Below are positions 3,111-49,286 of a DNA stretch of 57,317 bases, piece by piece. The translations under genes and the position numbers were made by a program. How positions within the stretch are numbered: position 1 is the stretch's first letter; each line of letters begins with the position of its first letter. Origin of the DNA: Candidatus Moraniibacteriota bacterium (GTDB taxonomy: Bacteria > Patescibacteriota > Minisyncoccia > Moranbacterales > GCA-2747515). The stretch spans positions 1 through 57,317 of the forward strand of contig PDPP01000021.1 of NCBI GenBank assembly GCA_002747515.1. Reading direction: 5' to 3'. The notes under the pieces are model-generated. The model saw only the letters and a program-made list of their open reading frames with translations, was not told where the DNA came from and made no database searches.

Positions 3111-3614
3111 ATGGATAGAGTATGGACATGGCCAAATATCATCACTGTGGCACGGTTGTTTTTTGGTGTATATTGGCTTTATCTTGCTACATTGCCGAAT
3201 AGTTTTTTTGTAGGAATAATGATGTTTGTGTTATGCGGTCTTTTGCCAGATGTAATTGATGGGTGGCTGGCACGAACATTCAATCAAAAAACGCGTTTTG
3301 GAGAATTTTTAGATCCTTTTGCAGATAAAATTCTTTTTTATCTTGCTATTTTATTATTATTCTCTGAAAATGTATGGTGGTCAGTGTTTATCCTTCTTGC
3401 GTGTGATATAGCATCTACATTTCTTCATTTTTTTAAAAGTGGTGGCGCTGTTAAAAGTGGAAAACAAAAATTTTTCTTACAAAACTGTGCACTTGGAGTT
3501 TTTATATTTGCTAAAATTACAGAATCAAATATAGCGTTTGTATTTGCGAACTTTGTATTGATTTGCGCAACTTTTTTTGCATTACATTCACTATGGAGTC
3601 GATTAAGGCGATAA
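3111..3614 (+). CDS. pgsA: CDP-alcohol phosphatidyltransferase family protein
   Basis: CDP-OH-P motif DGWLARTFNQKTRFGEFLDPFADK. Confidence 0.8.
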   Translation: MDRVWTWPNIITVARLFFGVYWLYLATLPNSFFVGIMMFVLCGLLPDVIDGWLARTFNQKTRFGEFLDPFADKILFYLAILLLFSENVWWSVFILLACDIASTFLHFFKSGGAVKSGKQKFFLQNCALGVFIFAKITESNIAFVFANFVLICATFFALHSLWSRLRR

Positions 3615-3615
3615 T

Positions 3616-3650
3616 TGTAGAGGTGATTGTATAATACAATCACCTCTCTT
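3616..3650 (+). terminator. Rho-independent terminator
   Basis: agaggtgattgtataatacaatcacctct perfect palindrome. Confidence 0.7.
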
Positions 3651-3707
3651 CTATATTTGTAGTTGATATAATATAATTACTATAGAATTATTTTTTAGAG
3701 ATGTGTT

Positions 3708-4508
3708 ATGAAAATTATTACATGGAATGTCAATGGTATTCGTGCAGTAGAACGAAAAAAAGAATTACAAAATCTTCTAGAGACATATGTACCAGATGTG
3801 TTGTTTTTACAAGAGATTAAGGGGAAGAGGGAACAATTTAGTAATTTTCTCACAAAAAATGAGATTTATGAACAATATTATCATAGTGCAGAAAAACCGG
3901 GCTATGCAGGTACAGGTATTTGGATTAGTCGGGAATTTCTGCAAAATGTAAGTGATGCTACATTTGATGTTCAAGTGCCAAAAGCACCAAATGCAGATGA
4001 AGGACGTGTATCACATGTATCTTTTGTGTTTAATGAACAAATATATGATTTATTATCAATTTATTTTCCAAATGGCGGTAAGAGTGAAAAGGCATGGGAA
4101 GAAAAATTAGATTTTTTTGATCGTGTTTTGGAATATATGAATGAACTTCGTAATCGAGAGCATGAAGTGATTGTCGGAGGTGATATGAATGTAGCACATA
4201 CAGAGATTGATCTTGCGCGTGCAAAGGAGAATGATGGTAATATTGGATTTCATCCACGAGAGCGTGCATGGATGGATCGCGTTTTGGAAAATGATTGGGC
4301 GGATGTATGGCGGACAAAAAATCCTAAAGTAACAGATGTGTATTCATGGTGGGATATGATTACACGTGCACGAGAAAGAAATGTGGGATGGCGTATTGAT
4401 TATTTTTTTGTAGACAAGAATTTTGTTAAAAAAGTGAGTGAGATAGAATATCTCAATGAACAGATGGGTTCTGATCACTGTCCACTTTTTATGCAGATTG
4501 ATGTGTAA
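3708..4508 (+). CDS. xth: Exodeoxyribonuclease III
   Basis: MKIITWNVNGIRA...LFLQEIKG...GGDMNVAHTEIDL...SDHCPL signature of AP endonuclease/ExoIII family. Confidence 0.9.
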   Translation: MKIITWNVNGIRAVERKKELQNLLETYVPDVLFLQEIKGKREQFSNFLTKNEIYEQYYHSAEKPGYAGTGIWISREFLQNVSDATFDVQVPKAPNADEGRVSHVSFVFNEQIYDLLSIYFPNGGKSEKAWEEKLDFFDRVLEYMNELRNREHEVIVGGDMNVAHTEIDLARAKENDGNIGFHPRERAWMDRVLENDWADVWRTKNPKVTDVYSWWDMITRARERNVGWRIDYFFVDKNFVKKVSEIEYLNEQMGSDHCPLFMQIDV

Positions 4509-4511
4509 TAT

Positions 4512-5048
4512 ATGATTGAGATACTTTTTTCAATTTTTGTAGTTATTTTATGTGTGTGGATTATATATACAGTGCTTTTTCTTGCACCGTGGCTACCAAC
4601 TTTTTCCAGAGATATGAAACGCATTGTGGAAATCGCAAACCTCGATGAAGGAGATGTCTTTTGTGAATTAGGATCAGGAGATGGACGTGTGAGTTTTTAT
4701 GTGAGTGAAAAAAGTCCACAGGCAAAAATTATTGGCGTAGAGATTTCTTATATATTACATAGTATTGCTAGTGTAAAAAAAATGTTTTCTCATGCAAAAA
4801 ACATCACATTTAAAAGAGAAGATATTTATAGAACAAATCTTAGTGATGTAGATGTAATCTATGTATTTGCAACATCACGATCTGCGAATAGACTTGCAAG
4901 ATATTTACAAAAATCTGTAAAAAAAGGTTCTCGAATCATATCTTATAATTTTCAGTTACCATTTGAGTCAAAGGTAGCAACTGAAAAGAAGGTAAAAGAA
5001 AAAAAGAGGACATGGTATTATATGTGTATGATATGGTTAGATAAATAA
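4512..5048 (+). CDS. Class I SAM-dependent methyltransferase
   Basis: GDVFCELGSGDGRVSFY motif I; N-terminal TM helix. Confidence 0.7.
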   Translation: MIEILFSIFVVILCVWIIYTVLFLAPWLPTFSRDMKRIVEIANLDEGDVFCELGSGDGRVSFYVSEKSPQAKIIGVEISYILHSIASVKKMFSHAKNITFKREDIYRTNLSDVDVIYVFATSRSANRLARYLQKSVKKGSRIISYNFQLPFESKVATEKKVKEKKRTWYYMCMIWLDK

Positions 5049-5099
5049 TGATGTGTGGCTAGTGGTAAACAGATGTAATCAGTGATAATATATTAAGCT

Positions 5100-5705
5100 A
5101 TGGTACAAAATCGTGTGAGACATCATGTAAATCCATTGGCAGATCGTACAGAACATCGATTTAGTGGATTTGGTAATGATAAACCTATTATTGTGGATAT
5201 TGGTGCTGATAGGGGAGAATTCAGTGAAAAATTAGTATATCTTTTTGGTGAAGAAAAAAATTTTATCGTGTGTGAAATTCGTAAGCCATTGGCGAGAAAG
5301 CTTGAGAAAAAATTTGAGAGTTACAAAAATGTTGTAGTTTTTGATGGTGATATGGTGCGAAATTTTGAAAATATTTTAAAACCATCTGTAGATAGTAATA
5401 TTCTCATTGAAGAAATATATATAAATTTTCCAGATCCATGGTTTAAAGAGCGACACAAAAAACGACGTATTATACATAAAGCATTTTTGGAGAGTGTGCA
5501 AAGGTGGATATCACCACAAACAAAATGGATTTTTCAGACAGACCAAAAGCAATTGTTTGATGAAACTGTGGAGGTTTTGAAAGAAATTGAAAATAGTGAA
5601 TTACATTTTTTTGATGAATCGCCATATGGTTACACAACAAAATGGGAGGATGCAAAAGTATCGGCAGGTAATAGGATTTATCGAGTATTTTTTTATTTAA
5701 AATAA
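5100..5705 (+). CDS. trmB: tRNA (guanine-N7-)-methyltransferase
   Basis: VDIGADRGEFSEK motif I and INFPDPWFKERHKKRRI hallmark. Confidence 0.9.
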   Translation: MVQNRVRHHVNPLADRTEHRFSGFGNDKPIIVDIGADRGEFSEKLVYLFGEEKNFIVCEIRKPLARKLEKKFESYKNVVVFDGDMVRNFENILKPSVDSNILIEEIYINFPDPWFKERHKKRRIIHKAFLESVQRWISPQTKWIFQTDQKQLFDETVEVLKEIENSELHFFDESPYGYTTKWEDAKVSAGNRIYRVFFYLK

Positions 5706-37706: not shown

Positions 37707-37796
37707 GGTGAGGTGGCCGAGTGGTTGAAGGCGCACGCTTGGAAAGCGTGTAAGGGGTAAAACTCTTCGCAGGTTCGAATCCTGTCCTCACCGCCA
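37707..37796 (+). tRNA. tRNA-Ser (anticodon GGA), CCA encoded
   Basis: ggtgagg...cctcacc acceptor, cacgc-ttGGAaa-gcgtg anticodon arm (anticodon 37741-37743), long variable arm, GGTTCGAATCC, gcca end. Confidence 0.95.
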
Positions 37797-37809
37797 ATGT
37801 ATTCTTTTT

Positions 37810-37891
37810 GGAGAGATGCTGGAGTGGTTGAATGGGATCGACTCGAAATCAGTTGTTTTATTTTTTATAGGACTGTTGGTTCGAATCTCAC
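37810..37891 (+). pseudogene. Truncated tRNA-Ser (anticodon CGA) relic
   Basis: GGAGAGA-TG-CTGGAGTGGTTGAATGGGATCGA-CTCGAAA-TCAGT...GTTGGTTCGAATCTCAC matches class II tRNA-Ser layout, but 3' acceptor strand (expected TCTCTCC) is absent and stems carry mismatches. Confidence 0.7.
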
Positions 37892-37933: not shown

Positions 37934-37972
37934 ACTCCCTCTGGTCGCGCACGCAAAATCAAAAATTTCCTT
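37934..37972. repeat. Left inverted repeat of R-M island
   Basis: actccctctggtcgcgcacgcaaaatcaaaaatttcctt; reverse complement at 43429-43467 with 1 mismatch in 39. Confidence 0.9.
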
Positions 37973-38138
37973 ACTCTTCCAAAAAACGGCGGAGGTGCAG
38001 GGGGCCGCAAAAAATTGGAAGGAAATTTTATAGTTTTGCTTCTGTTGCTTTCAGTTCGTTTGTGAAAATTACACATACCTGTTATCATTATATTGAAAGT
38101 GTAGAAAATCAATATCATACTATCAAATTATTGAAATT

Positions 38139-38345
38139 ATGGTAAAAGAAATAGAAATCGGCAAAAACATAAAAAAGTACCGCAACAAGCAAGAATTGTC
38201 GCAAGAAGACTTTGCAAAAAAGTCTGGTGTGAAATATACGACTTTGACAAAAATTGAAAGCGGAGTGATTAAAAAACCGTCTGTGTTGGTTATGGCACAG
38301 ATTGCTAAAGCGCTCGGCGTTCAAATTGAGGATTTAATAAAATAA
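38139..38345 (+). CDS. XRE-family HTH regulator (R-M controller-like)
   Basis: IGKNIKKYRNKQELSQEDFAKKSGVKYTTLTKIESG; 1-nt gap to next CDS. Confidence 0.85.
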   Translation: MVKEIEIGKNIKKYRNKQELSQEDFAKKSGVKYTTLTKIESGVIKKPSVLVMAQIAKALGVQIEDLIK

Positions 38346-38346
38346 C

Positions 38347-40155
38347 ATGGCAAAGATTAAAGACATTCCAAAAGTTGATAGACCACGAGAAAAATTTCTC
38401 AAAAAAGGTCCGGAAGCACTTTCAAAAAGTGATCTTTTGGCAATCTTGCTCGGAAGTGGAATTAAGGGGAAAAATGTTCAACAGCTTTCGCAACAAATCA
38501 TCAAAAAATTTGGCAAAAACTTTTTGAATATTACGGTTAATGATTTGAAAGGTGTCGCAGGAATTGGCGAAGCCAAAGCGCTACAAATTGCGTCAGCAAT
38601 TTCTCTCGTAAAAAGATTTTATGCAGATGATCAAACAAATGAAGTTGTGATAAAAAATTCTCAAGATGTTGCTTCACTTACTTATGATTTACGAAGCAAG
38701 AAAAAAGAGCATTTAGTTTGTTTGTATCTCAACGCACGAAATGTTTTGCTAAAAAAGGAAGTGGTGAGCGTTGGACTTGCCGACAAAACTCTACTTCACC
38801 CAAGAGAAATTTTTTACCCTGCAACAGAACTCAACGCCGCGAGTGTGATTTTGATACACAATCATCCGTCTGGTAACTCATCGCCAAGTGAAAAAGATAT
38901 TGAGATTGTGGAGAAAATCGCACAAGCGGGAGAAATAATGGGGATTCCAGTTATTGATTTTATCATTATTTCTGAAAAAGGAGATTACAGTTTTTACGAA
39001 AAACTAAAAGATCAAAACAAAGGTTTTGATTATGTCGCAGACGGAATACAGGGAACACTTTTTGATTTATTGGAAATTGAGAGATCATCCTATGAAATAA
39101 GCGCAGAAAAAATCCAAGAAACCTATTTTCATATTCCACAAGTTAAAGAAAATCATTTCCAATTACAAAATCGTCGATACATCGGCAATAAATATAAATT
39201 AATAGAATGGATTTTTTCTATACTTGATAAAGAATGTGACGGAAAATCATTTACAGATATCTTTGCGGGAACAGGTGTTGTAGCTGCGGTTGCAAGTAAA
39301 CATTTTGACGAAATTATTTTGAATGATTTTCTTTTCTCAAATGAAGCAATATACAGAGCATTTTTTGATAATGGAAATTGGAATCCAGAAAAAATCAATT
39401 CCATAATTAAAGATTGCAACAATATAAACGGAGAAGATTTAAATGAAAACTATTTTTCTCTAAATTTTGGCGGAAAATATTTCTCAAAAAATTCTGCAAA
39501 AATTATTGGATCTGTACGAGAAAATATAGAGAAAAACAAGGAAAATTTAACGGAGCGAGAATATAATATGTTGATTTCCTCTTTACTTTATTCTATTGAT
39601 AAAATTGCAAACACGGTTGGGCACTATGATGCGTATTTCAAAAAAGATTTTATCGAAGATAATTTCTTTATGCGACCAATAGACCCTATCGAAGTAAAAG
39701 TAGTTTCAATTTTTCGAGAAGATGCAAATTTGCTTGCGAAGCAAGTAAAAACGGACATCGTTTATATTGATCCGCCATACAATTCCCGACAATACAGCAG
39801 GTTTTATCATGTGTTAGAAACGCTAACTAAATGGGATAAACCAAAATTGCATGGTGTAGCGCTAAAACCAGAACCAGAAAATATGAGTGATTATTGTCGT
39901 GTAAGCGCAAAGGATAGATTTGCAGAATTGGTAAATGATATAAATGCAAAATATTTAGTTGTTTCCTACAACAATACTTACGAGTCAAAAAGCAATTCAT
40001 CACAGAATAAAATTACACTTGAAGAAATAAAAAATATTTTAAGCAAAAGAGGAAAAACAAAAGTATTTGAAAAAGATTATCGGCATTTCAATGCTGGAAA
40101 TACTGACTTTAATAATCACAAAGAATATTTGTTTGTAACTAAAACTATGTCATGA
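38347..40155 (+). CDS. RadC (JAB/MPN) domain fused to D12-type adenine DNA methyltransferase
   Basis: RPREKFLKKGPEALSKSDLLAILLGSG, HhH VAGIGEAKA, HNHPSGNSSPSEKD; then RRYIGNKYKLIEWI, FTDIFAGTGVVA, VYIDPPYNSRQYSRFYHVLETLTKWD, in one uninterrupted 602 aa frame. Confidence 0.85.
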   Translation: MAKIKDIPKVDRPREKFLKKGPEALSKSDLLAILLGSGIKGKNVQQLSQQIIKKFGKNFLNITVNDLKGVAGIGEAKALQIASAISLVKRFYADDQTNEVVIKNSQDVASLTYDLRSKKKEHLVCLYLNARNVLLKKEVVSVGLADKTLLHPREIFYPATELNAASVILIHNHPSGNSSPSEKDIEIVEKIAQAGEIMGIPVIDFIIISEKGDYSFYEKLKDQNKGFDYVADGIQGTLFDLLEIERSSYEISAEKIQETYFHIPQVKENHFQLQNRRYIGNKYKLIEWIFSILDKECDGKSFTDIFAGTGVVAAVASKHFDEIILNDFLFSNEAIYRAFFDNGNWNPEKINSIIKDCNNINGEDLNENYFSLNFGGKYFSKNSAKIIGSVRENIEKNKENLTEREYNMLISSLLYSIDKIANTVGHYDAYFKKDFIEDNFFMRPIDPIEVKVVSIFREDANLLAKQVKTDIVYIDPPYNSRQYSRFYHVLETLTKWDKPKLHGVALKPEPENMSDYCRVSAKDRFAELVNDINAKYLVVSYNNTYESKSNSSQNKITLEEIKNILSKRGKTKVFEKDYRHFNAGNTDFNNHKEYLFVTKTMS

Positions 40156-41057
40156 ATAAGAAAATAAAAAGATCACCCCTGTTTTATGTCGGGGATAAAT
40201 ATCGGTTAATGAAGCAAATTTTAGATTTATTTCCCGAGGGAATAGATAATTTTTACGAACCGTTTGTTGGCGGTGGTACTGTTTTTTTGAATGTCGAAGC
40301 AAACAAATATTTCCTAAACGATATAGACAGACATCTTGTAAATATTCATAAGTTTTTGATTTCCAACGCAAAAAAACCAGAAAAGTTTTTTAACGAGGTT
40401 GAGAGAATTATTTACAAATACAAATTATCTCATTCTTATAAAAAAGATATTGTTCCCGATTCACTCAAAAAAGAGTTCAAAAAGACTTATTATGCAAGAT
40501 TCAATAAAGAGGGCTATGAAAAATTAAGAATTTGTGTAAATAAAAACAAAAAAAATGACCCTCTCATTCTCTATGTATTGTTGATTTATGGATTTAATAG
40601 AATGCTTCGTTTCAATGGTGGTGGAAAATTTAATCTGCCCGTTGGAAATGTGGATTTCAATAAAAATGTTGTTAGTGCTTTAAATAACTATTTTGATTTT
40701 GTAAAAAATAAAAAGATTAAATTTACAACAAAGGATTTTAGAAAATTTTTTGAGAATAAAGAATTTTCCAAGAATGATTTTGTTTACATTGATCCACCAT
40801 ATCTTATAACTTCGAGTGAGTACAATAAGTTATGGAACGAGAAAGAAGAATCTGATTTATTGAATTTTATTGATGAATTGGATAAAAATGGTGTTAAATT
40901 TGCCTTGTCAAATGTTACGCATTACAACGGAAGCAAAAATGATTTTTTGATAAAATGGATGAAAAAATACAATACATACAAGATAAAAAGTAATTATATT
41001 AGTTACCATAATAACGGAAAGAAAAAAATCACTGAGATTCTAGTTACAAATTATTAA
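40152..41057 (+). CDS. DNA adenine methylase (Dam/D12 class)
   Basis: FYVGDKYRLMKQI, FYEPFVGGGTVFLNV, FVYIDPPYLITSSEYNKLW; ATGA overlap with preceding CDS. Confidence 0.9.
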   Translation: MNKKIKRSPLFYVGDKYRLMKQILDLFPEGIDNFYEPFVGGGTVFLNVEANKYFLNDIDRHLVNIHKFLISNAKKPEKFFNEVERIIYKYKLSHSYKKDIVPDSLKKEFKKTYYARFNKEGYEKLRICVNKNKKNDPLILYVLLIYGFNRMLRFNGGGKFNLPVGNVDFNKNVVSALNNYFDFVKNKKIKFTTKDFRKFFENKEFSKNDFVYIDPPYLITSSEYNKLWNEKEESDLLNFIDELDKNGVKFALSNVTHYNGSKNDFLIKWMKKYNTYKIKSNYISYHNNGKKKITEILVTNY

Positions 41058-41058
41058 T

Positions 41059-42657
41059 ATGAGACAAAACACACCAAAATATAAACCCTTATTGTTTACA
41101 ACAACAATGCGTAACCCAAAAAGACTGAAAGGGATTTTAAATGTGTTTAAGTATTTTGACGGAGAACAACTAACTAATGAGCTAGCAACTTCAATTATGG
41201 GCGAGCTTATTCGATATGGTTTGTATCGTCCAACAAAAGGAATAACTAAGAGCATAGAGCAAAAGTGGGGGTCTAAGAGAATTACAGACACATCTCAAAT
41301 TGGAGTTGAGCTTCTTTCTGACAAAGATGTAACTCATCTTCTTGAAAAGAATCCACAAAGGCATAAAGAGGCTGGATTTGAAGCGGGTTGGCCTTCGCGT
41401 TTTGCTACGGTGTTTGATTTGGCGAAGGAATTAGGTTTTGTGTATTACAAACAAGGAGAAAATATTCAGTTTTCAGAAATTGGTAATCTCCTTGCGGAAT
41501 CAATAGAAATTACCACTGAGGATGGTTTGATTGGCTTAAATGATGTACACCCTGAATTTGAACAACATGCGTTTCTCAATGCGCTTGCGAAATACCAACG
41601 CAAAAATCCGTTTGTTCGTGTTCTAAACGACAATGTTCCGCTTATCTTGCTTTTGGAAGTAATACAGAAATTAAAAGATGATCCTGAATTATCAGATGCG
41701 GGTATATCAAAATTAGAGTTGCCTTTTGTTGCATTCTGGAAAAATAACGATTCAAATGCACTTTACCGATTTATTAAAGCATTTCGTGAACGACACGGAC
41801 TAAATCCGAGTTTTGAGGTAATTGTTGACGTTTGTGTTGACGATATTATGGAAGGTGATTATAAAAAGTTTAAACCTAGTTCGCTCACAAGTGATTATGT
41901 GGATGAGTTTATTCGAAAAATGCGCCTTACTGGCATTTTTTCACTTCGTGGTGCAGGACGCTTTCTTGATATAAACCAAAAAGAAATTGATAAAGTTCGT
42001 TATATACTTGCTACTTATTCTGATTATTCTGAATACACGAATGAACGAGAATATTTTAAATATGTTTCAACAATAGATGATAATCTTGTATCTGTAACAC
42101 TAACAACAGCAGAAGAACAAAGCGTTTATCTTGAGAAATGGGTAAATACTTTTTCATGGGATGAAATCCGGAAGGAGATGATGATACTGGCGCAGAAACA
42201 AATGTCAAAAAACGACATTCTGAAATATATTGCGGCACCTGTACGCCTTGAATTTCTAGCTTCTATAGCTATAAAATCAAAATTTCCAGATATCCGAGTT
42301 TCTCCCAACTATCCTGTTGATGACGAAGGTTTGCCAACATCTACCGCTGCAGGCACAAACAACACAGGAGACATAGAGTGTTTTGAAAATCAGAATGGCG
42401 TGTTGGTTGAAGTAACCATGTCAGAGGGTCGTATCCAGACAATGATGGAGGTATGGCCGATTAGTAGGCATCTCGAAGCATTTAAACCAAAAGTAGAGAG
42501 TGCAATGTGCTATTTTGTTGCCCCAAGTATATTTAGTGACTCTGCGAGACAGATTGATTATGTAAAGAAAACTGAAAACTTATTCATTATTCCTAAAACA
42601 ATTGAGGATTTTCTAGAACATTTGGAAAATAATTCAGTTTTATACTCTATGCAATAA
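41059..42657 (+). CDS. AlwI-family-like type II restriction endonuclease
   Basis: N-terminal LLFTTTMRNPKRLKGIL; C-terminal PVDDEGLPTSTAAGTNNTGDIECFENQNGVLVEVTMSEGRIQTMMEVWPISRHLEAF (D...ExT nuclease-like core); adjacent to two MTases. Confidence 0.7.
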   Translation: MRQNTPKYKPLLFTTTMRNPKRLKGILNVFKYFDGEQLTNELATSIMGELIRYGLYRPTKGITKSIEQKWGSKRITDTSQIGVELLSDKDVTHLLEKNPQRHKEAGFEAGWPSRFATVFDLAKELGFVYYKQGENIQFSEIGNLLAESIEITTEDGLIGLNDVHPEFEQHAFLNALAKYQRKNPFVRVLNDNVPLILLLEVIQKLKDDPELSDAGISKLELPFVAFWKNNDSNALYRFIKAFRERHGLNPSFEVIVDVCVDDIMEGDYKKFKPSSLTSDYVDEFIRKMRLTGIFSLRGAGRFLDINQKEIDKVRYILATYSDYSEYTNEREYFKYVSTIDDNLVSVTLTTAEEQSVYLEKWVNTFSWDEIRKEMMILAQKQMSKNDILKYIAAPVRLEFLASIAIKSKFPDIRVSPNYPVDDEGLPTSTAAGTNNTGDIECFENQNGVLVEVTMSEGRIQTMMEVWPISRHLEAFKPKVESAMCYFVAPSIFSDSARQIDYVKKTENLFIIPKTIEDFLEHLENNSVLYSMQ

Positions 42658-42674: not shown

Positions 42675-43049
42675 AATACAATTAAGAATTTCAGACTTTT
42701 TCCCACAGATAAGGATTTTGAAATTGATAACATAAATACGTCCGACGGCACAAATGAGAGTTTGGGATTAAATGTTTTTGTTGGCGAGAGCGGAATAAAG
42801 GCACATCCCACACAAAAACCTTTAAAACTTATTCAGCAAGTTTTGCTTTTCGCAAGTAATAAAGGTGATATTGTTTTTAATCCATTTATGGGGAGTGGCA
42901 CAACGGCAGTTGTTGCTGAAGCGTTAGAGCGCAAATGGTTTGGAATTGAGAGAGATAAAAAATATTTTAAACTTGCGGAGAACAGAATTGAGAATTTTAT
43001 AAAAAATGCGGAAAAACAGTCTTTGTGTGATAATACAACATACAAGTAA
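42675..43049 (+). pseudogene. C-terminal fragment of an N4/N6 beta-class DNA methyltransferase
   Basis: AHPTQKPLKLIQQVLLFASNKGDIVFNPFMGSGTTAVVAEALERKWFGIERD; no upstream catalytic DPPY/SPPY in frame and no clear in-frame ATG. Confidence 0.65.
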
Positions 43050-43428
43050 TAGCAAACATCATGAAAGTTAAGTGGTTACTACAAAATCAAGCACCAGCAG
43101 GTCATGGGCATTGTTGTTGGGGAATATAAATTTGCATTGCGTACAACAGAGATCTTTGAGTTTGTAACATTTGGTTTCAAATTTGTTGAAGCTTGTAGAT
43201 TTGAATAATTGAAGAGGGTTCTACTCTTGAGCGAACGGACTTTAGATTTACCACAGACGTAGTGATTCGGGTCGGCGCAAGCGATGAAGAAAAAGGTGAT
43301 ATGCAGACAGCACCATGCTATATTTCATTTACAAGCCTTTTTCGTAGGAGTGAAGTGCTGCAATTAAAACCCTAAAATTTCCTTTCAATATTTTGTGACT
43401 TCCCTTACATCTTGCCGTTTTAAAAGGA

Positions 43429-43467
43429 AAGGAAATTTTTGGTTTTGCGTGCGCGACCAGAGGGAGT
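43429..43467. repeat. Right inverted repeat of R-M island
   Basis: aaggaaatttttggttttgcgtgcgcgaccagagggagt, reverse complement of 37934-37972 (38/39). Confidence 0.9.
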
Positions 43468-45749: not shown

Positions 45750-46025
45750 GTGATGAGATTTATACATATTGCACAAGCAGGACCAATGGCAGATGCACCA
45801 CGATTGAGTGACATTCTTCTTAATGTGTTGAATTTTGTATTAATGATTGTTGGTGTACTCGCAGTTCTAGTTGTTTTGGTATCTGGTGTGATGTATATTA
45901 CGTCAGGAGGGGATAGTGAGCGTGTTGCATTTGCAAAGAAGGCTCTTGTAGGAGGTGTCATTGGGATTCTTGTGGCAGTGTTAGCATTGGTTATTGTACA
46001 TGCGGTTACAAGTAGTCTTGTGTAA
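45750..46025 (+). CDS. T4SS pilin-like small membrane protein (paralogue 1)
   Basis: VLVSGVMYITSGGDSERVAFAKKALVGGVIGILVAVLALVIV. Confidence 0.75.
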   Translation: MMRFIHIAQAGPMADAPRLSDILLNVLNFVLMIVGVLAVLVVLVSGVMYITSGGDSERVAFAKKALVGGVIGILVAVLALVIVHAVTSSLV

Positions 46026-46092
46026 TTTTTCAGATATGCGATAATAAGGATATGAAAAATAAAAATGAAATTGAGAAAGGGGGTGGCAATAC

Positions 46093-46443
46093 ATGATAAA
46101 GAAAATGAAAAATACTATGTATGCAGTTTTGTCAACGGTGCTTTTGTTGCCGGCAGTAGTTTCTGCACAATACAAAGTAGGTAATGCTCCAAAAGGCATG
46201 GCAAAACAGGCAGATGCAAATAGTCTTTTAACACAAGTTATTAACTGGCTTCTCGGAATTCTTGCATCACTAAGTATTTTGATGATTGTTGTTGCTGGTA
46301 TTATGTACATTACATCTGCAGGTGATGAAGGTAAGGTAGAATCAGCAAAAAAATGGCTTATTTATGCGGTTGTTGGTTTGGTGGTAGCACTCCTCGGATT
46401 TGTAATCGTCTCTACGGTTTCAGGCGCACTTGGTGCTGGGTAA
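46093..46443 (+). CDS. T4SS pilin-like membrane protein (paralogue 2)
   Basis: Signal peptide ...VVSAQ; VVAGIMYITSAGDEGKVESAKKWLIYAVVGLVVALLGFVIV. Confidence 0.78.
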   Translation: MIKKMKNTMYAVLSTVLLLPAVVSAQYKVGNAPKGMAKQADANSLLTQVINWLLGILASLSILMIVVAGIMYITSAGDEGKVESAKKWLIYAVVGLVVALLGFVIVSTVSGALGAG

Positions 46444-46574
46444 GTAAGGAATAGTATTTTTTTATATAGAATTGTAGAAAATATCAACGAAAAAAACGAG
46501 GGCATGTACCTCGTTTTTTCTTTTTTATTGATTGGTGGTATACTCTCTGTGAAAAATGTGATTAGAATCATACT

Positions 46575-46916
46575 ATGAAAAAATATATAATAATACAATT
46601 TTTTGCATTTATGCCACATCTGGTAAGTGCACAGTACAATCCACAACAGAAAAATGGTCTCAATTTTGAAATATTTGATATCGTATCGCATATCATTGGA
46701 TTTATAATGGATGCAATCCAATTTTTTATTGGGATATGGGTTATGTATTTATTGCTTTTTGTGATTATTGCAGCAATATTGTATTTCACATCTGGTGGAG
46801 ATGAGGATCGTATGGATAAGGCAATGGAGTGGTGGAAGAGGAGTGCTATAGGTTTGATCATTGCACCGATTGCATTTGTAATCATTTCTCTTGTCAGTGA
46901 TGCATTGGATATATAA
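46575..46916 (+). CDS. T4SS pilin-like membrane protein (paralogue 3, divergent)
   Basis: Signal ...LVSAQ; IIAAILYFTSGGDEDRMDKAMEWWKRSAIGLIIAPIAFVII. Confidence 0.7.
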   Translation: MKKYIIIQFFAFMPHLVSAQYNPQQKNGLNFEIFDIVSHIIGFIMDAIQFFIGIWVMYLLLFVIIAAILYFTSGGDEDRMDKAMEWWKRSAIGLIIAPIAFVIISLVSDALDI

Positions 46917-46981
46917 GTATTTTTGGTTTTCAAATAGTTTAATGGTATAATATAAAATAAGAAAAAAATAAAAGAAAAATT

Positions 46982-47434
46982 ATGAAAAAACTATTTTGTT
47001 TTCTTTTTAGCCTGATGTTTTTCATTTTTCCACTTGCGACATATGCAGCACCGTGTCCTAATGGCGGATATATGAATCAAAATGGTGTCTGTGTACCACC
47101 AGCAAAAAAACAGCAAGGGTCATCAGTTAAGTGTCCTACTGGAACAAGTAATTATAAAGGGGTTTGTGTGCCGACAAAAGGAAAAACAGGTTTATCTGAC
47201 AGTGATGTAGGAAATGTCATTGAAAATGTGACAAAATTTGTCACAGGTCTTATTGCTGTGTTATCAATTTTTATGATTGTTGTTTCTGGTATCATGTACA
47301 TCACATCAGCAGGTGATGATCAAAAAGTCACTCAAGCAAAAAACATTCTTACATTTGCAATCATCGGTCTCGTCGTAGCACTTCTCGGTTATGTGATTGT
47401 CATTGCAGTGGGATCAGCAACTGGTGCGTGGTAG
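46982..47434 (+). CDS. T4SS pilin-like membrane protein with Cys-containing N-terminal region (paralogue 4)
   Basis: CPNGGYMNQNGVCVPP...CPTGTSNYKGVCVPTKGK; VVSGIMYITSAGDDQKVTQAKNILTFAIIGLVVALLGYVIV. Confidence 0.78.
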   Translation: MKKLFCFLFSLMFFIFPLATYAAPCPNGGYMNQNGVCVPPAKKQQGSSVKCPTGTSNYKGVCVPTKGKTGLSDSDVGNVIENVTKFVTGLIAVLSIFMIVVSGIMYITSAGDDQKVTQAKNILTFAIIGLVVALLGYVIVIAVGSATGAW

Positions 47435-47457
47435 TGTTATTAATCTCAAAAATATAT

Positions 47458-47805
47458 ATGAAAAACTCAAAAATTTTTTTTATATCTCTATTTCTGACAA
47501 TAGTAACTTTTCCAAGTATTGCATTGGCACAATTAACAAAACCGACACAATCACATGGTCTCGTGCACAATCATAGCTTTTTAGGAGTATTGGAAGGAGT
47601 TTTATATTGGATTTTGCGCATCACAGCATCACTTTCAATTCTTATGATTGTGATAGCTGGTGTCATATATGTCACGTCAGGAGGAGATCAAGGACGTGTT
47701 GACACAGCAAAAAAAATGCTCACTTTTGCAATTGTTGGGCTTATCGTGGCATTACTTGGTTTTGTAATTACGTCTGCTGTTTCTAATGCACTTGGTGCAG
47801 GGTAA
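47458..47805 (+). CDS. T4SS pilin-like membrane protein (paralogue 5)
   Basis: VIAGVIYVTSGGDQGRVDTAKKMLTFAIVGLIVALLGFVI. Confidence 0.78.
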   Translation: MKNSKIFFISLFLTIVTFPSIALAQLTKPTQSHGLVHNHSFLGVLEGVLYWILRITASLSILMIVIAGVIYVTSGGDQGRVDTAKKMLTFAIVGLIVALLGFVITSAVSNALGAG

Positions 47806-47822
47806 AATTATTATAAAAAAAT

Positions 47823-49286
47823 ATGAAAATACAAAAAAATAAAATCACATATATCATTTTTCCAACATTTTGTTTTTTTATATTGTTCTTTTTGCATATT
47901 TCTTCTACACAAGCGACTATTACAAAAGCAGAAGCACAAAAATTGCTTTCAAGGCAATTTATTGAACAATCAGAAAAAAACATTAATATTTATATGCAAT
48001 CTGTTAATGTTGGCATGACAAGTGAACAAGCATTGAATAATATTAATAAATTACAAAATTTTACATCATCAAGTCCATCTGTTGAAGGCCTTATTACAGG
48101 GGGACAGTGGTCATATATTGGTGATGTAATTGCTTTTACACCAAATGCTTCTTTTATTGCTGAAGTCCCAGAGAAGAAGAGAAATTATGATTATACAAGG
48201 AGGCGTATTGACGGAATTGAAGAAGTAGTGGATGAGAGTACAGCGAGTGGTGAAAATTATAATGATGTATTTGATAAATATAAAAAAGCATTAGGTAGTT
48301 CTAAAATTTCAGGAACAAGAGTTGGTGAGTTGATGCTCAAGAGATATAGGGATCAATTTCCAAAAGAAGGTCAACCGCGGTTTCATGAAGAGGTTAATCA
48401 AATGGTAAAAGAGATGAATGAGAAAATGTCACAGGATTTATTTAATAAAGTGGCAACAGTTGCTCAAGAGCATGGCGTTGATATTGATGATGTCACAGGA
48501 TACATGACCGATCTTCAAATTCCTGGTGCTGGATATACAGTAAAGATCAAAACAGCTGATGGAAAGATATATCCACCTGATACAAATGCAACCAATCCTT
48601 CAAATGCAAATCCTAATGGAACAAAAAATCCTGCTACTAACGCAACAGGAATCGCTAAAGCTAGTTCCAATCCCAGTACAACAAGTCCTGCAACAACTAC
48701 ACCTGGTGGAAGTCCTGCAGCAATTGCACCTGGTGGAAGTCCTGCAGCAATTGCATCTGGAGGCGGTTCTTCTCCAACATTTAAAAATCCAATTCAATTT
48801 GGCACTGTAGATGGTTTGTTGGAAAACATCCTTACTACTGTACAGGGGATTGTGGCGGTTCTCGCAACAGTGATGATTGTCATCGGTGGAATCATCTATA
48901 TCACATCAGCAGGGGATCAAGGACGTGTACAACTAGCAAAGACAGCTATTACATCAGCAATCATCGGTCTTGCGATTGCGATTGCAGCACCGACGTTTCT
49001 CTTTGAAATCTATAATGTGCTCGGTGCGACCAATAACTCAAGTGCTGTAGCAAATGCTACACCGCTTAGCACAATCCTCTTTAACATTCTTAACCTCTTA
49101 CTCGGCATTATCGGTACGCTTTCTGTACTGATGCTCGTCATAGGTGGTATCATGTACATGACGTCAGCAGGAGATCAAACACGAGCAGATACAGCAAAAA
49201 AGACAATTCAATATTCTATTGCAGGTCTTGCAGTGGCGGTTCTTGCACTTGTAATCGTGCGAGCAGTAGCAAGTATGTTTACATAA
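47823..49286 (+). CDS. Secreted N-terminal domain + Asn/Pro/Thr/Gly-rich linker + two tandem T4SS pilin-like domains
   Basis: IGGIIYITSAGDQGRVQLAKTAITSAIIGLAIAIAAP and IGGIMYMTSAGDQTRADTAKKTIQYSIAGLAVAVLALVIV in one ORF. Confidence 0.8.
   Translation: MKIQKNKITYIIFPTFCFFILFFLHISSTQATITKAEAQKLLSRQFIEQSEKNINIYMQSVNVGMTSEQALNNINKLQNFTSSSPSVEGLITGGQWSYIGDVIAFTPNASFIAEVPEKKRNYDYTRRRIDGIEEVVDESTASGENYNDVFDKYKKALGSSKISGTRVGELMLKRYRDQFPKEGQPRFHEEVNQMVKEMNEKMSQDLFNKVATVAQEHGVDIDDVTGYMTDLQIPGAGYTVKIKTADGKIYPPDTNATNPSNANPNGTKNPATNATGIAKASSNPSTTSPATTTPGGSPAAIAPGGSPAAIASGGGSSPTFKNPIQFGTVDGLLENILTTVQGIVAVLATVMIVIGGIIYITSAGDQGRVQLAKTAITSAIIGLAIAIAAPTFLFEIYNVLGATNNSSAVANATPLSTILFNILNLLLGIIGTLSVLMLVIGGIMYMTSAGDQTRADTAKKTIQYSIAGLAVAVLALVIVRAVASMFT

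What the first reader, a model, noticed from the sequence alone, without database searches (positions are those of the whole stretch)
38347..40155. Single-ORF fusion of RadC (JAB/MPN) and D12 adenine DNA methyltransferase
One uninterrupted 602-aa frame carries an apparently complete RadC (N-terminal domain, helix-hairpin-helix VAGIGEAKA, metal site HNHPSGNSSPSEKD) followed by a full methyltransferase (FADIF-like FTDIFAGTGVVA, catalytic DPPYNSRQY). RadC's function is still unclear, though it often travels with mobile/defence loci. Covalent linkage to a modification enzyme inside an R-M operon suggests RadC acts in DNA modification or restriction, for example as a JAMM protease or DNA-processing module that regulates the methylase or endonuclease.
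Basis: partly seen in the sequence, partly recalled or inferred. Interest (0 to 1): 0.78.

Follow-up and report, generated by a model that had tools for sequence, protein, structure and literature searches.

The report
RadC module fused to protective DNA methylases
In this small uncultured bacterium, and in at least 20 other genomes, a RadC protein of unknown function and a short peptide that looks like a replication-clamp docking motif are built onto the front of several unrelated self-protecting DNA methylases of restriction systems, which gives RadC a testable job: bringing the methylase to newly copied DNA.

Summary
Window 38347-40155 is one 602-aa frame: a full RadC (UPF0758_N + JAB), a 50-aa linker and an intact D12 adenine methylase. 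It sits in an operon XRE / RadC-M1 / M2 / AlwI-type endonuclease. It is not an artefact: I found 21 further loci with the fusion. The RadCs form one clade (support 100/100), well apart from ordinary stand-alone RadC. This clade is fused to six methylase lineages from three catalytic superfamilies (two D12 types, one N6_N4, three C5), always inside restriction-modification loci and never to an endonuclease.

New here: the otherwise variable linker holds a conserved core, Y[VI]xxGxQxxLFDLL. It fits the bacterial sliding-clamp motif QxxLF, which also stands at the usual DnaE position in all 13 fusion-bearing genomes tested. Two methylases that lack RadC keep the motif. Two swaps exchanged RadC plus motif as one unit. 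The metal site is invariant in all rows and under purifying selection.

Best explanation (inferred, about 0.45): RadC plus clamp motif is a swappable tether that carries the protective methylase to replicating DNA before the partner endonuclease cuts. Clamp binding and RadC's own activity are untested. A new variant of type II restriction-modification.

The parts
38139..38345 (+). XRE-family HTH regulator (68 aa), candidate control protein of the operon
   Evidence: Pfam HTH_3 4e-17; PADLOC Control_protein 8.5e-12; stop 1 nt before the fusion's ATG
38347..39021 (+). RadC part of the fusion: UPF0758_N / helix-hairpin-helix (residues 4-98) and JAB domain (102-219), metal site E154, H171, H173, S181, D184
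   Evidence: model matches PDB 2qlc RadC, TM 0.87 by target length, rmsd 1.8; ligands invariant 21/21
39031..39072 (+). Conserved linker core YVADGIQGTLFDLL (residues 229-242) with clamp-binding-like pentapeptide QGTLF (235-239)
   Evidence: Column entropy 1.04 against 2.0 on both sides; Y229, G233, L238, F239 invariant in 13 divergent representatives, Q235 12/13; linker predicted disordered, pLDDT < 50
39151..40155 (+). D12-class N6-adenine methyltransferase (M1), FTDIFAGTGVVA and DPPYNSRQY, plus stop codon
   Evidence: Pfam MethyltransfD12 2e-36; PADLOC MTase_II PDLC03373 2.9e-129
40152..41057 (+). Second D12/Dam-type methyltransferase (M2), start overlaps the fusion's stop
   Evidence: Pfam 5e-32, TIGR00571 dam 1e-42 above cut-off
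41059..42657 (+). AlwI-type restriction endonuclease
   Evidence: Pfam RE_AlwI 1.7e-36; PADLOC REase_II 8.5e-128
42762..43049 (+). 3' remnant of a beta-class N6/N4 methyltransferase (only profile positions 159-220 of 221 left)
   Evidence: Pfam N6_N4_Mtase 2.5e-22; an intact N6_N4 gene lies after the endonuclease in L083 and L084
37934..38045 (+). Left flanking inverted repeat of the cassette
   Evidence: 81% match over 104 nt to 43366-43467 on the other strand; only these two copies in the genome
43366..43467 (-). Right flanking inverted repeat of the cassette

Best explanation
The 602-aa protein is the protective methylase of an AlwI-type restriction-modification system that carries an exchangeable N-terminal recruitment module: RadC (helix-hairpin-helix + JAB domain) followed by a flexible linker with a sliding-clamp docking peptide (QGTLF). 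Most likely the peptide binds DnaN and RadC contacts DNA structures at or behind the fork. This would bring the methylase to freshly replicated, hemimethylated DNA so that sites are modified before the partner endonuclease cuts. Shown here: the fusion, its recurrence, its restriction to methylases, exchange of the module as a unit, conservation of the motif also without RadC, and an intact metal site under purifying selection. Inferred: binding to DnaN, and recruitment to replicating DNA. Not known: what the RadC domain does chemically.
For: (1) Twenty-two loci carry the fusion. Every RadC >=57% identical to the window's continues into linker and methylase; in the CPR samples the others (<=49%) are stand-alone. 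(2) Partners are D12, N6_N4 and C5 methylases with AlwI-, HpaII- and NgoFVII-type endonuclease neighbours. (3) The linker core QxxLF is conserved across all classes while its surroundings diverge; 20 of 21 linkers carry it, against 2.4e-4 per residue in other ORFs of these loci. (4) DnaE of 13 of 13 fusion-bearing genomes has Q-x-[SDG]-L-F at the usual position; the window genome's is QNSLF, identical to the linkers of L029, L083 and L084. (5) The genome's DnaN keeps the E. coli cleft residues R152, L155, T172, L177, P242, V361, M362, P363. (6) Methylases L034 and L036 lack RadC but keep FQDKLF / VQTRLF near the N-terminus. (7) L029 is a mosaic whose junction lies just after the motif; L102 and L071 share RadC and linker (80-89%) but have C5 methylases only 32% alike. 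(8) QxxLF is the accepted bacterial clamp-binding consensus (PMC12309361); DNMT1-PCNA is a precedent for a clamp-tethered methylase (PMC9690074).
Against: No binding was tested, and a five-residue motif is weak evidence alone. L028 has H in place of Q. Conservation extends to Y229, G233 and L241, so the segment may have a structural role; a stand-alone RadC (L148) has a similar tail, YLREGVFSIDLLKLW, without QxxLF. The AlphaFold model shows a low-confidence helix there. The linkers are related by descent, so 20 of 21 is not 20 independent observations. No DNA-targeting activity is proven for RadC. Most R-M methylases do without such a tether.
Confidence: 0.45

Rival explanations
1. The module aims the methylase at incoming or recombining DNA rather than at the fork: RadC binds single-stranded or branched DNA taken up by transformation, so that new host-useful DNA is methylated before the endonuclease meets it, in the manner of DpnA in pneumococcus (the DpnA comparison is from general knowledge).
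For: Papers on core streptococcal competence genes came up for radC (PMC5069739, PMC6001120; not read in detail). RadC domains are common on conjugative elements and were proposed to process nucleic acids (PMC5512222). The linker motif could equally engage clamps on recombination intermediates.
Against: The 2008 paper 'RadC, a misleading name?' disputes a repair role, and a later review cites it for a lack of repair phenotype. Nothing in the operon is competence-specific. The D12 partners look like ordinary R-M methylases.
Confidence: 0.2
2. RadC is an active JAMM metallo-hydrolase that regulates the methylase or endonuclease, for example by cleaving itself, a tag or the endonuclease.
For: All five metal-site residues are invariant in 21 of 21 fusions. 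RadC is under purifying selection, pN/pS about 0.01-0.30. The fold matches the 2qlc JAB structure.
Against: No substrate or ubiquitin-like gene was seen in the operons. PMC5512222 argues that RadC is unlikely to have the ubiquitin-tail groove. Two family members lack RadC but keep the linker motif and the R-M partners.
Confidence: 0.12
3. Co-expression fusion: a mobile RadC gene became joined to methylases for balanced dosage in a compact operon, and the linker core is a structural cap of this RadC subfamily rather than a docking site.
For: Some cassettes look mobile (flanking inverted repeats, recombinases). Conserved Y229/G233/L241 flank QxxLF. L148 has a similar tail without a methylase.
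Against: Endonucleases and second methylases were never joined. Six methylase lineages were joined to the same RadC clade. QxxLF survives where RadC is absent (L034, L036), which a RadC cap would not explain. The segment is predicted disordered.
Confidence: 0.18

Closest known systems
Type II (IIS, AlwI-type) restriction-modification systems
   Same: Two D12/Dam-type methylases plus an RE_AlwI endonuclease in one operon; M1 homologues without RadC stand next to AlwI-family endonucleases on Helicobacter plasmids
   Different: M1 carries a RadC + clamp-motif module at its N-terminus; the best M1 matches on plasmids and phages start only at residue ~263 or later
RadC / UPF0758 family (PDB 2qlc)
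   Same: Both domains present, above NCBIfam RadC cut-offs, metal site intact, fold match
   Different: Separate clade (100/100, stem 0.8 changes per column), never stand-alone in the sample, with a conserved C-terminal extension absent from ordinary RadC
RadC-DinG helicase fusions and RadC domains in polyvalent proteins
   Same: RadC as a module of larger DNA-acting, conflict-related proteins (PMC11981726, PMC5512222)
   Different: Here the partner is a type II methylase in an R-M operon; I found no report of this pairing
DNMT1-PCNA (clamp-tethered maintenance methylase of eukaryotes)
   Same: A methylase with a clamp-binding peptide that favours hemimethylated new DNA (PMC9690074)
   Different: Analogy only; no homology, clamp binding untested here, and the module includes RadC

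Membership tests
Type II restriction-modification system, AlwI type | AlwI-family endonuclease gene | tested here: met
   RE_AlwI 1.7e-36, PADLOC REase_II 8.5e-128
Type II restriction-modification system, AlwI type | Cognate methylase(s) with intact catalytic motifs in the same operon | tested here: met
   M1 with DPPY and FxGxG motifs and M2 Dam-type, overlapping/adjacent genes
Type II restriction-modification system, AlwI type | Cleaves GGATC-like sites outside the sequence; methylases protect them | not testable with these tools
   needs enzyme assay or methylome
RadC (UPF0758) | UPF0758_N domain plus JAB domain above curated cut-offs | tested here: met
RadC (UPF0758) | Metal ligands E..HxH..S..D | tested here: met
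   E154, H171, H173, S181, D184 in 21/21
RadC (UPF0758) | Stand-alone protein of about 225 aa | tested here: not met
   all members of this clade are fused; it is a RadC domain in a larger protein, not a classic RadC protein
Sliding-clamp (DnaN) client | QxxLF-type motif in a flexible segment | tested here: met
   20 of 21 linkers; pLDDT < 50; same pattern in host DnaE
Sliding-clamp (DnaN) client | Physical binding to DnaN | not testable with these tools
   no complex prediction or assay available
JAMM isopeptidase/protease | Cleavage of a ubiquitin-like or other protein substrate | not testable with these tools
   metal site intact, no substrate gene seen
Polyvalent protein of conjugative elements | Many domains on a conjugative/phage element with ArdC, primase or helicase domains | tested here: not met
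   only RadC + methylase; no such neighbours in the window operon; no fusion in plasmid or phage collections

The most novel reading that the evidence does not exclude
RadC plus a clamp-docking peptide is a general, mobile tether that R-M methylases of any chemistry acquire in order to travel with the replication clamp and remethylate new DNA: a bacterial counterpart of DNMT1's PCNA-binding motif, and the first concrete job for a RadC domain.
Probability: 0.38. Interest if true: 0.86.

Novelty: new variant of a known kind. Interest (0 to 1): 0.72.

Why it matters
RadC is a common bacterial marker protein whose function has been disputed for decades. Here a RadC subfamily is covalently tied to enzymes whose job is known, and only to methylases, so RadC's contribution can be read out as a change in protection, methylation kinetics or localisation. 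If the clamp motif works, it would answer how a newly replicated genome is protected from its own restriction enzyme, and would give a modular way to tether methylases to replication.

Tried and rejected
Assembly or frameshift artefact: rejected, the same frame recurs in many assemblies. Phage or plasmid cargo: no fusion in the annotated phage or plasmid records; two IMG/VR scans found no relative, but those scans reach only close relatives. Insertion of the R-M cassette into the host's own radC: rejected, the fused RadCs form one clade far from same-genus stand-alone RadC (44-45% identity). Confinement to CPR bacteria: weakened, two of 396 genomes in a Desulfobacterota-labelled sample carry it, one on a contig with dnaX and recR (these two names are my reading of the protein sequences); none in 348 Bacteroidota-labelled genomes (E <= 1e-45); bin labels may be wrong. 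Methylase tree for gain or loss of RadC in L034/L036: unresolved. Literature on RadC-methylase fusions or clamp-bound bacterial methylases: nothing in the open-access library; subscription papers, REBASE and InterPro architectures were not available.

Full report
Observation. The frame 38347-40155 is real and uninterrupted: 602 aa from ATG to stop. Pfam finds UPF0758_N (residues 4-78), the RadC JAB domain (102-219) and MethyltransfD12 (278-540), each at E <= 1.1e-22. NCBIfam scores residues 12-219 as RadC well over its cut-off. The linker has no methionine, so the two parts are not obviously separable by an internal ATG start. The window is one whole contig (C33) of a 1.08 Mb assembly (completeness 99.8%), and this is the only RadC in that genome.

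Operon. An XRE regulator (38139-38345) ends 1 nt before the fusion. The fusion's stop overlaps the start of a second D12/Dam-type methylase (40152-41057). An AlwI-type endonuclease follows (41059-42657), then a 3' remnant of an N6/N4 methylase (42762-43049). The whole cassette lies between imperfect inverted repeats, 37934-38045 and 43366-43467 (81% over 104 nt), which occur nowhere else in the genome.

Recurrence. Searching with the methylase part alone brought back loci in which the same frame begins with RadC and is followed by the same M2 and endonuclease genes. Searching with RadC in the order, class and phylum samples found more, and a Desulfobacterota-labelled sample gave another. Together there are 22 distinct loci including the window. 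Four of these are incomplete: L033, L076 and L102 at contig ends, and L072, whose frame breaks at the start of the methylase. Some loci come from bins labelled Desulfobacteraceae, Brocadiaceae, Gammaproteobacteria, Clostridiales and Auribacterota. One such contig (L159) appears to carry dnaX and recR beside the fusion, so some of these hosts may be real and imply transfer between phyla; bin labels remain uncertain.

A RadC clade that is always fused. In the CPR samples the split is clean. Every RadC at least 57% identical to the window's runs on into a linker and a methylase. Those at or below 49% are stand-alone and end shortly after the JAB domain. In a tree of 54 RadC domains the fused ones form a single group (100/100) on a stem of 0.8 changes per column.

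Many methylases, one module. The C-terminal partner is a D12 methylase with AlwI-type endonuclease and second D12 methylase (window type); a different D12 methylase with a larger AlwI-type endonuclease and an N6_N4 methylase (L083, L084); an N6_N4 methylase (L070); a C5 methylase with a HpaII-type endonuclease and Vsr (L071; L085 has the same methylase and a similar endonuclease); a C5 methylase with an NgoFVII-like endonuclease and Vsr (L101); and a further C5 methylase (L102). No endonuclease was found fused to this RadC.

The module is exchanged as a unit. L029 is a mosaic. In blocks up to residue 210 it is 87-97% identical to L083, whose methylase is of the other D12 type; from residue 241 on it is 63-97% identical to the window-type proteins instead. 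The junction lies just after the motif QNSLFDLLE. L102 and L071 share RadC and linker (80-89%) but their C5 methylases are only 32% identical.

The linker motif. Across 13 divergent representatives the stretch 230-245 has mean entropy 1.04 bits against 1.99 and 2.02 on either side. Y229, G233, L238 and F239 are invariant and Q235 is kept in 12. The pentapeptide QxxLF is present in 20 of 21 linkers; L028 has H for Q. QxxLF is the general bacterial clamp-binding consensus (PMC12309361). In 13 of 13 fusion-bearing genomes the DNA polymerase DnaE has Q-x-[SDG]-L-F at its expected site; in the window's genome it is QNSLF. The genome's DnaN retains key residues of the E. coli peptide cleft (which residues form the cleft is from general knowledge). 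AlphaFold gives the linker pLDDT below 50 in both jobs, as expected for a flexible segment. Two window-type methylases without RadC (L034, L036) still start with a short extension that holds FQDKLFEVLE or VQTRLFDLLE, whereas more distant relatives (L037, L038) have neither. So the motif is retained apart from RadC.

RadC is kept functional. The metal ligands are invariant in 21 of 21 rows. pN/pS over RadC regions is about 0.01-0.30, similar to or somewhat above that of the methylase part. The model's JAB domain matches PDB 2qlc (TM 0.87 by target length, rmsd 1.8).

How it most likely works. Shown: an exchangeable RadC + motif module, specific to methylases of R-M systems, under selection. Inferred: the motif docks on DnaN and carries the methylase to freshly replicated DNA, where sites are hemimethylated and most at risk from the partner endonuclease. 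DNMT1 and PCNA offer a precedent for such tethering (PMC9690074). RadC itself may hold DNA structures at the fork; its chemistry is unknown. Rivals are targeting of incoming DNA, proteolytic control, or a co-expression fusion with a structural linker. The chief doubts are the lack of any binding test, the shortness of the motif, shared descent of the linkers, and a similar tail without QxxLF on one stand-alone RadC (L148).

Known or new. RadC domains have been described with DinG helicases (PMC11981726) and in polyvalent proteins (PMC5512222). I found no description of RadC-methylase fusions, nor of a clamp motif in an R-M methylase, in the open-access library; that library is incomplete and REBASE could not be searched. 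I file it as a new variant of type II restriction-modification.

Noticed in passing
window 37934-38045 and 43366-43467: Imperfect inverted repeats (81% over 104 nt) that occur only here in the genome and bound the whole R-M cassette, as if it were a mobile unit without its own recombinase.
   Followed up: partly
window 37805-37848: 73% copy of the 5' half of the neighbouring tRNA-Ser gene (37707-37796), not called as a tRNA by ARAGORN: a possible tRNA remnant at the left edge of the cassette.
   Followed up: no
L085 5234-5442 and 11107-11315: 209-nt inverted repeats, 99% complementary, flank the RadC-C5 methylase cassette, with a large serine recombinase at 3554-5296.
   Followed up: partly
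L157 286-5020: Three integrase-like ORFs in a row (one confirmed by Pfam) and a fragment that reads like the start of a Mod-type methylase just before a RadC-methylase operon in a Desulfobacterota-labelled genome; the fragment contains QLGMF, also clamp-motif-like.
   Followed up: partly
L071 3586-3993, L101 8527-8943: Vsr mismatch endonuclease genes next to RadC-C5 methylase systems.
   Followed up: no
L025 3346-4191, L030 3343-4191, L100 9928-10800: A DUF4357 protein sits beside several RadC-methylase operons, upstream or downstream (Pfam checked in L025 and L100, L030 by similarity): a possible accessory gene.
   Followed up: partly
L148 1462-2223: A stand-alone RadC (254-aa frame, 50% identical) with tail YLREGVFSIDLLKLW resembling the fusion linker core without QxxLF: a possible intermediate.
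   Followed up: partly
L072 667-2363: RadC fused to a D12 methylase whose frame breaks right at the start of the methylase, so the system looks decayed there.
   Followed up: no
window 45750-49286: Run of small membrane proteins sharing a G-[IV]-[IM]-Y-[IVM]-T-S-[AG]-G-D motif near the C-terminus, like VirB2/TrbC-type pilins repeated in tandem.
   Followed up: no
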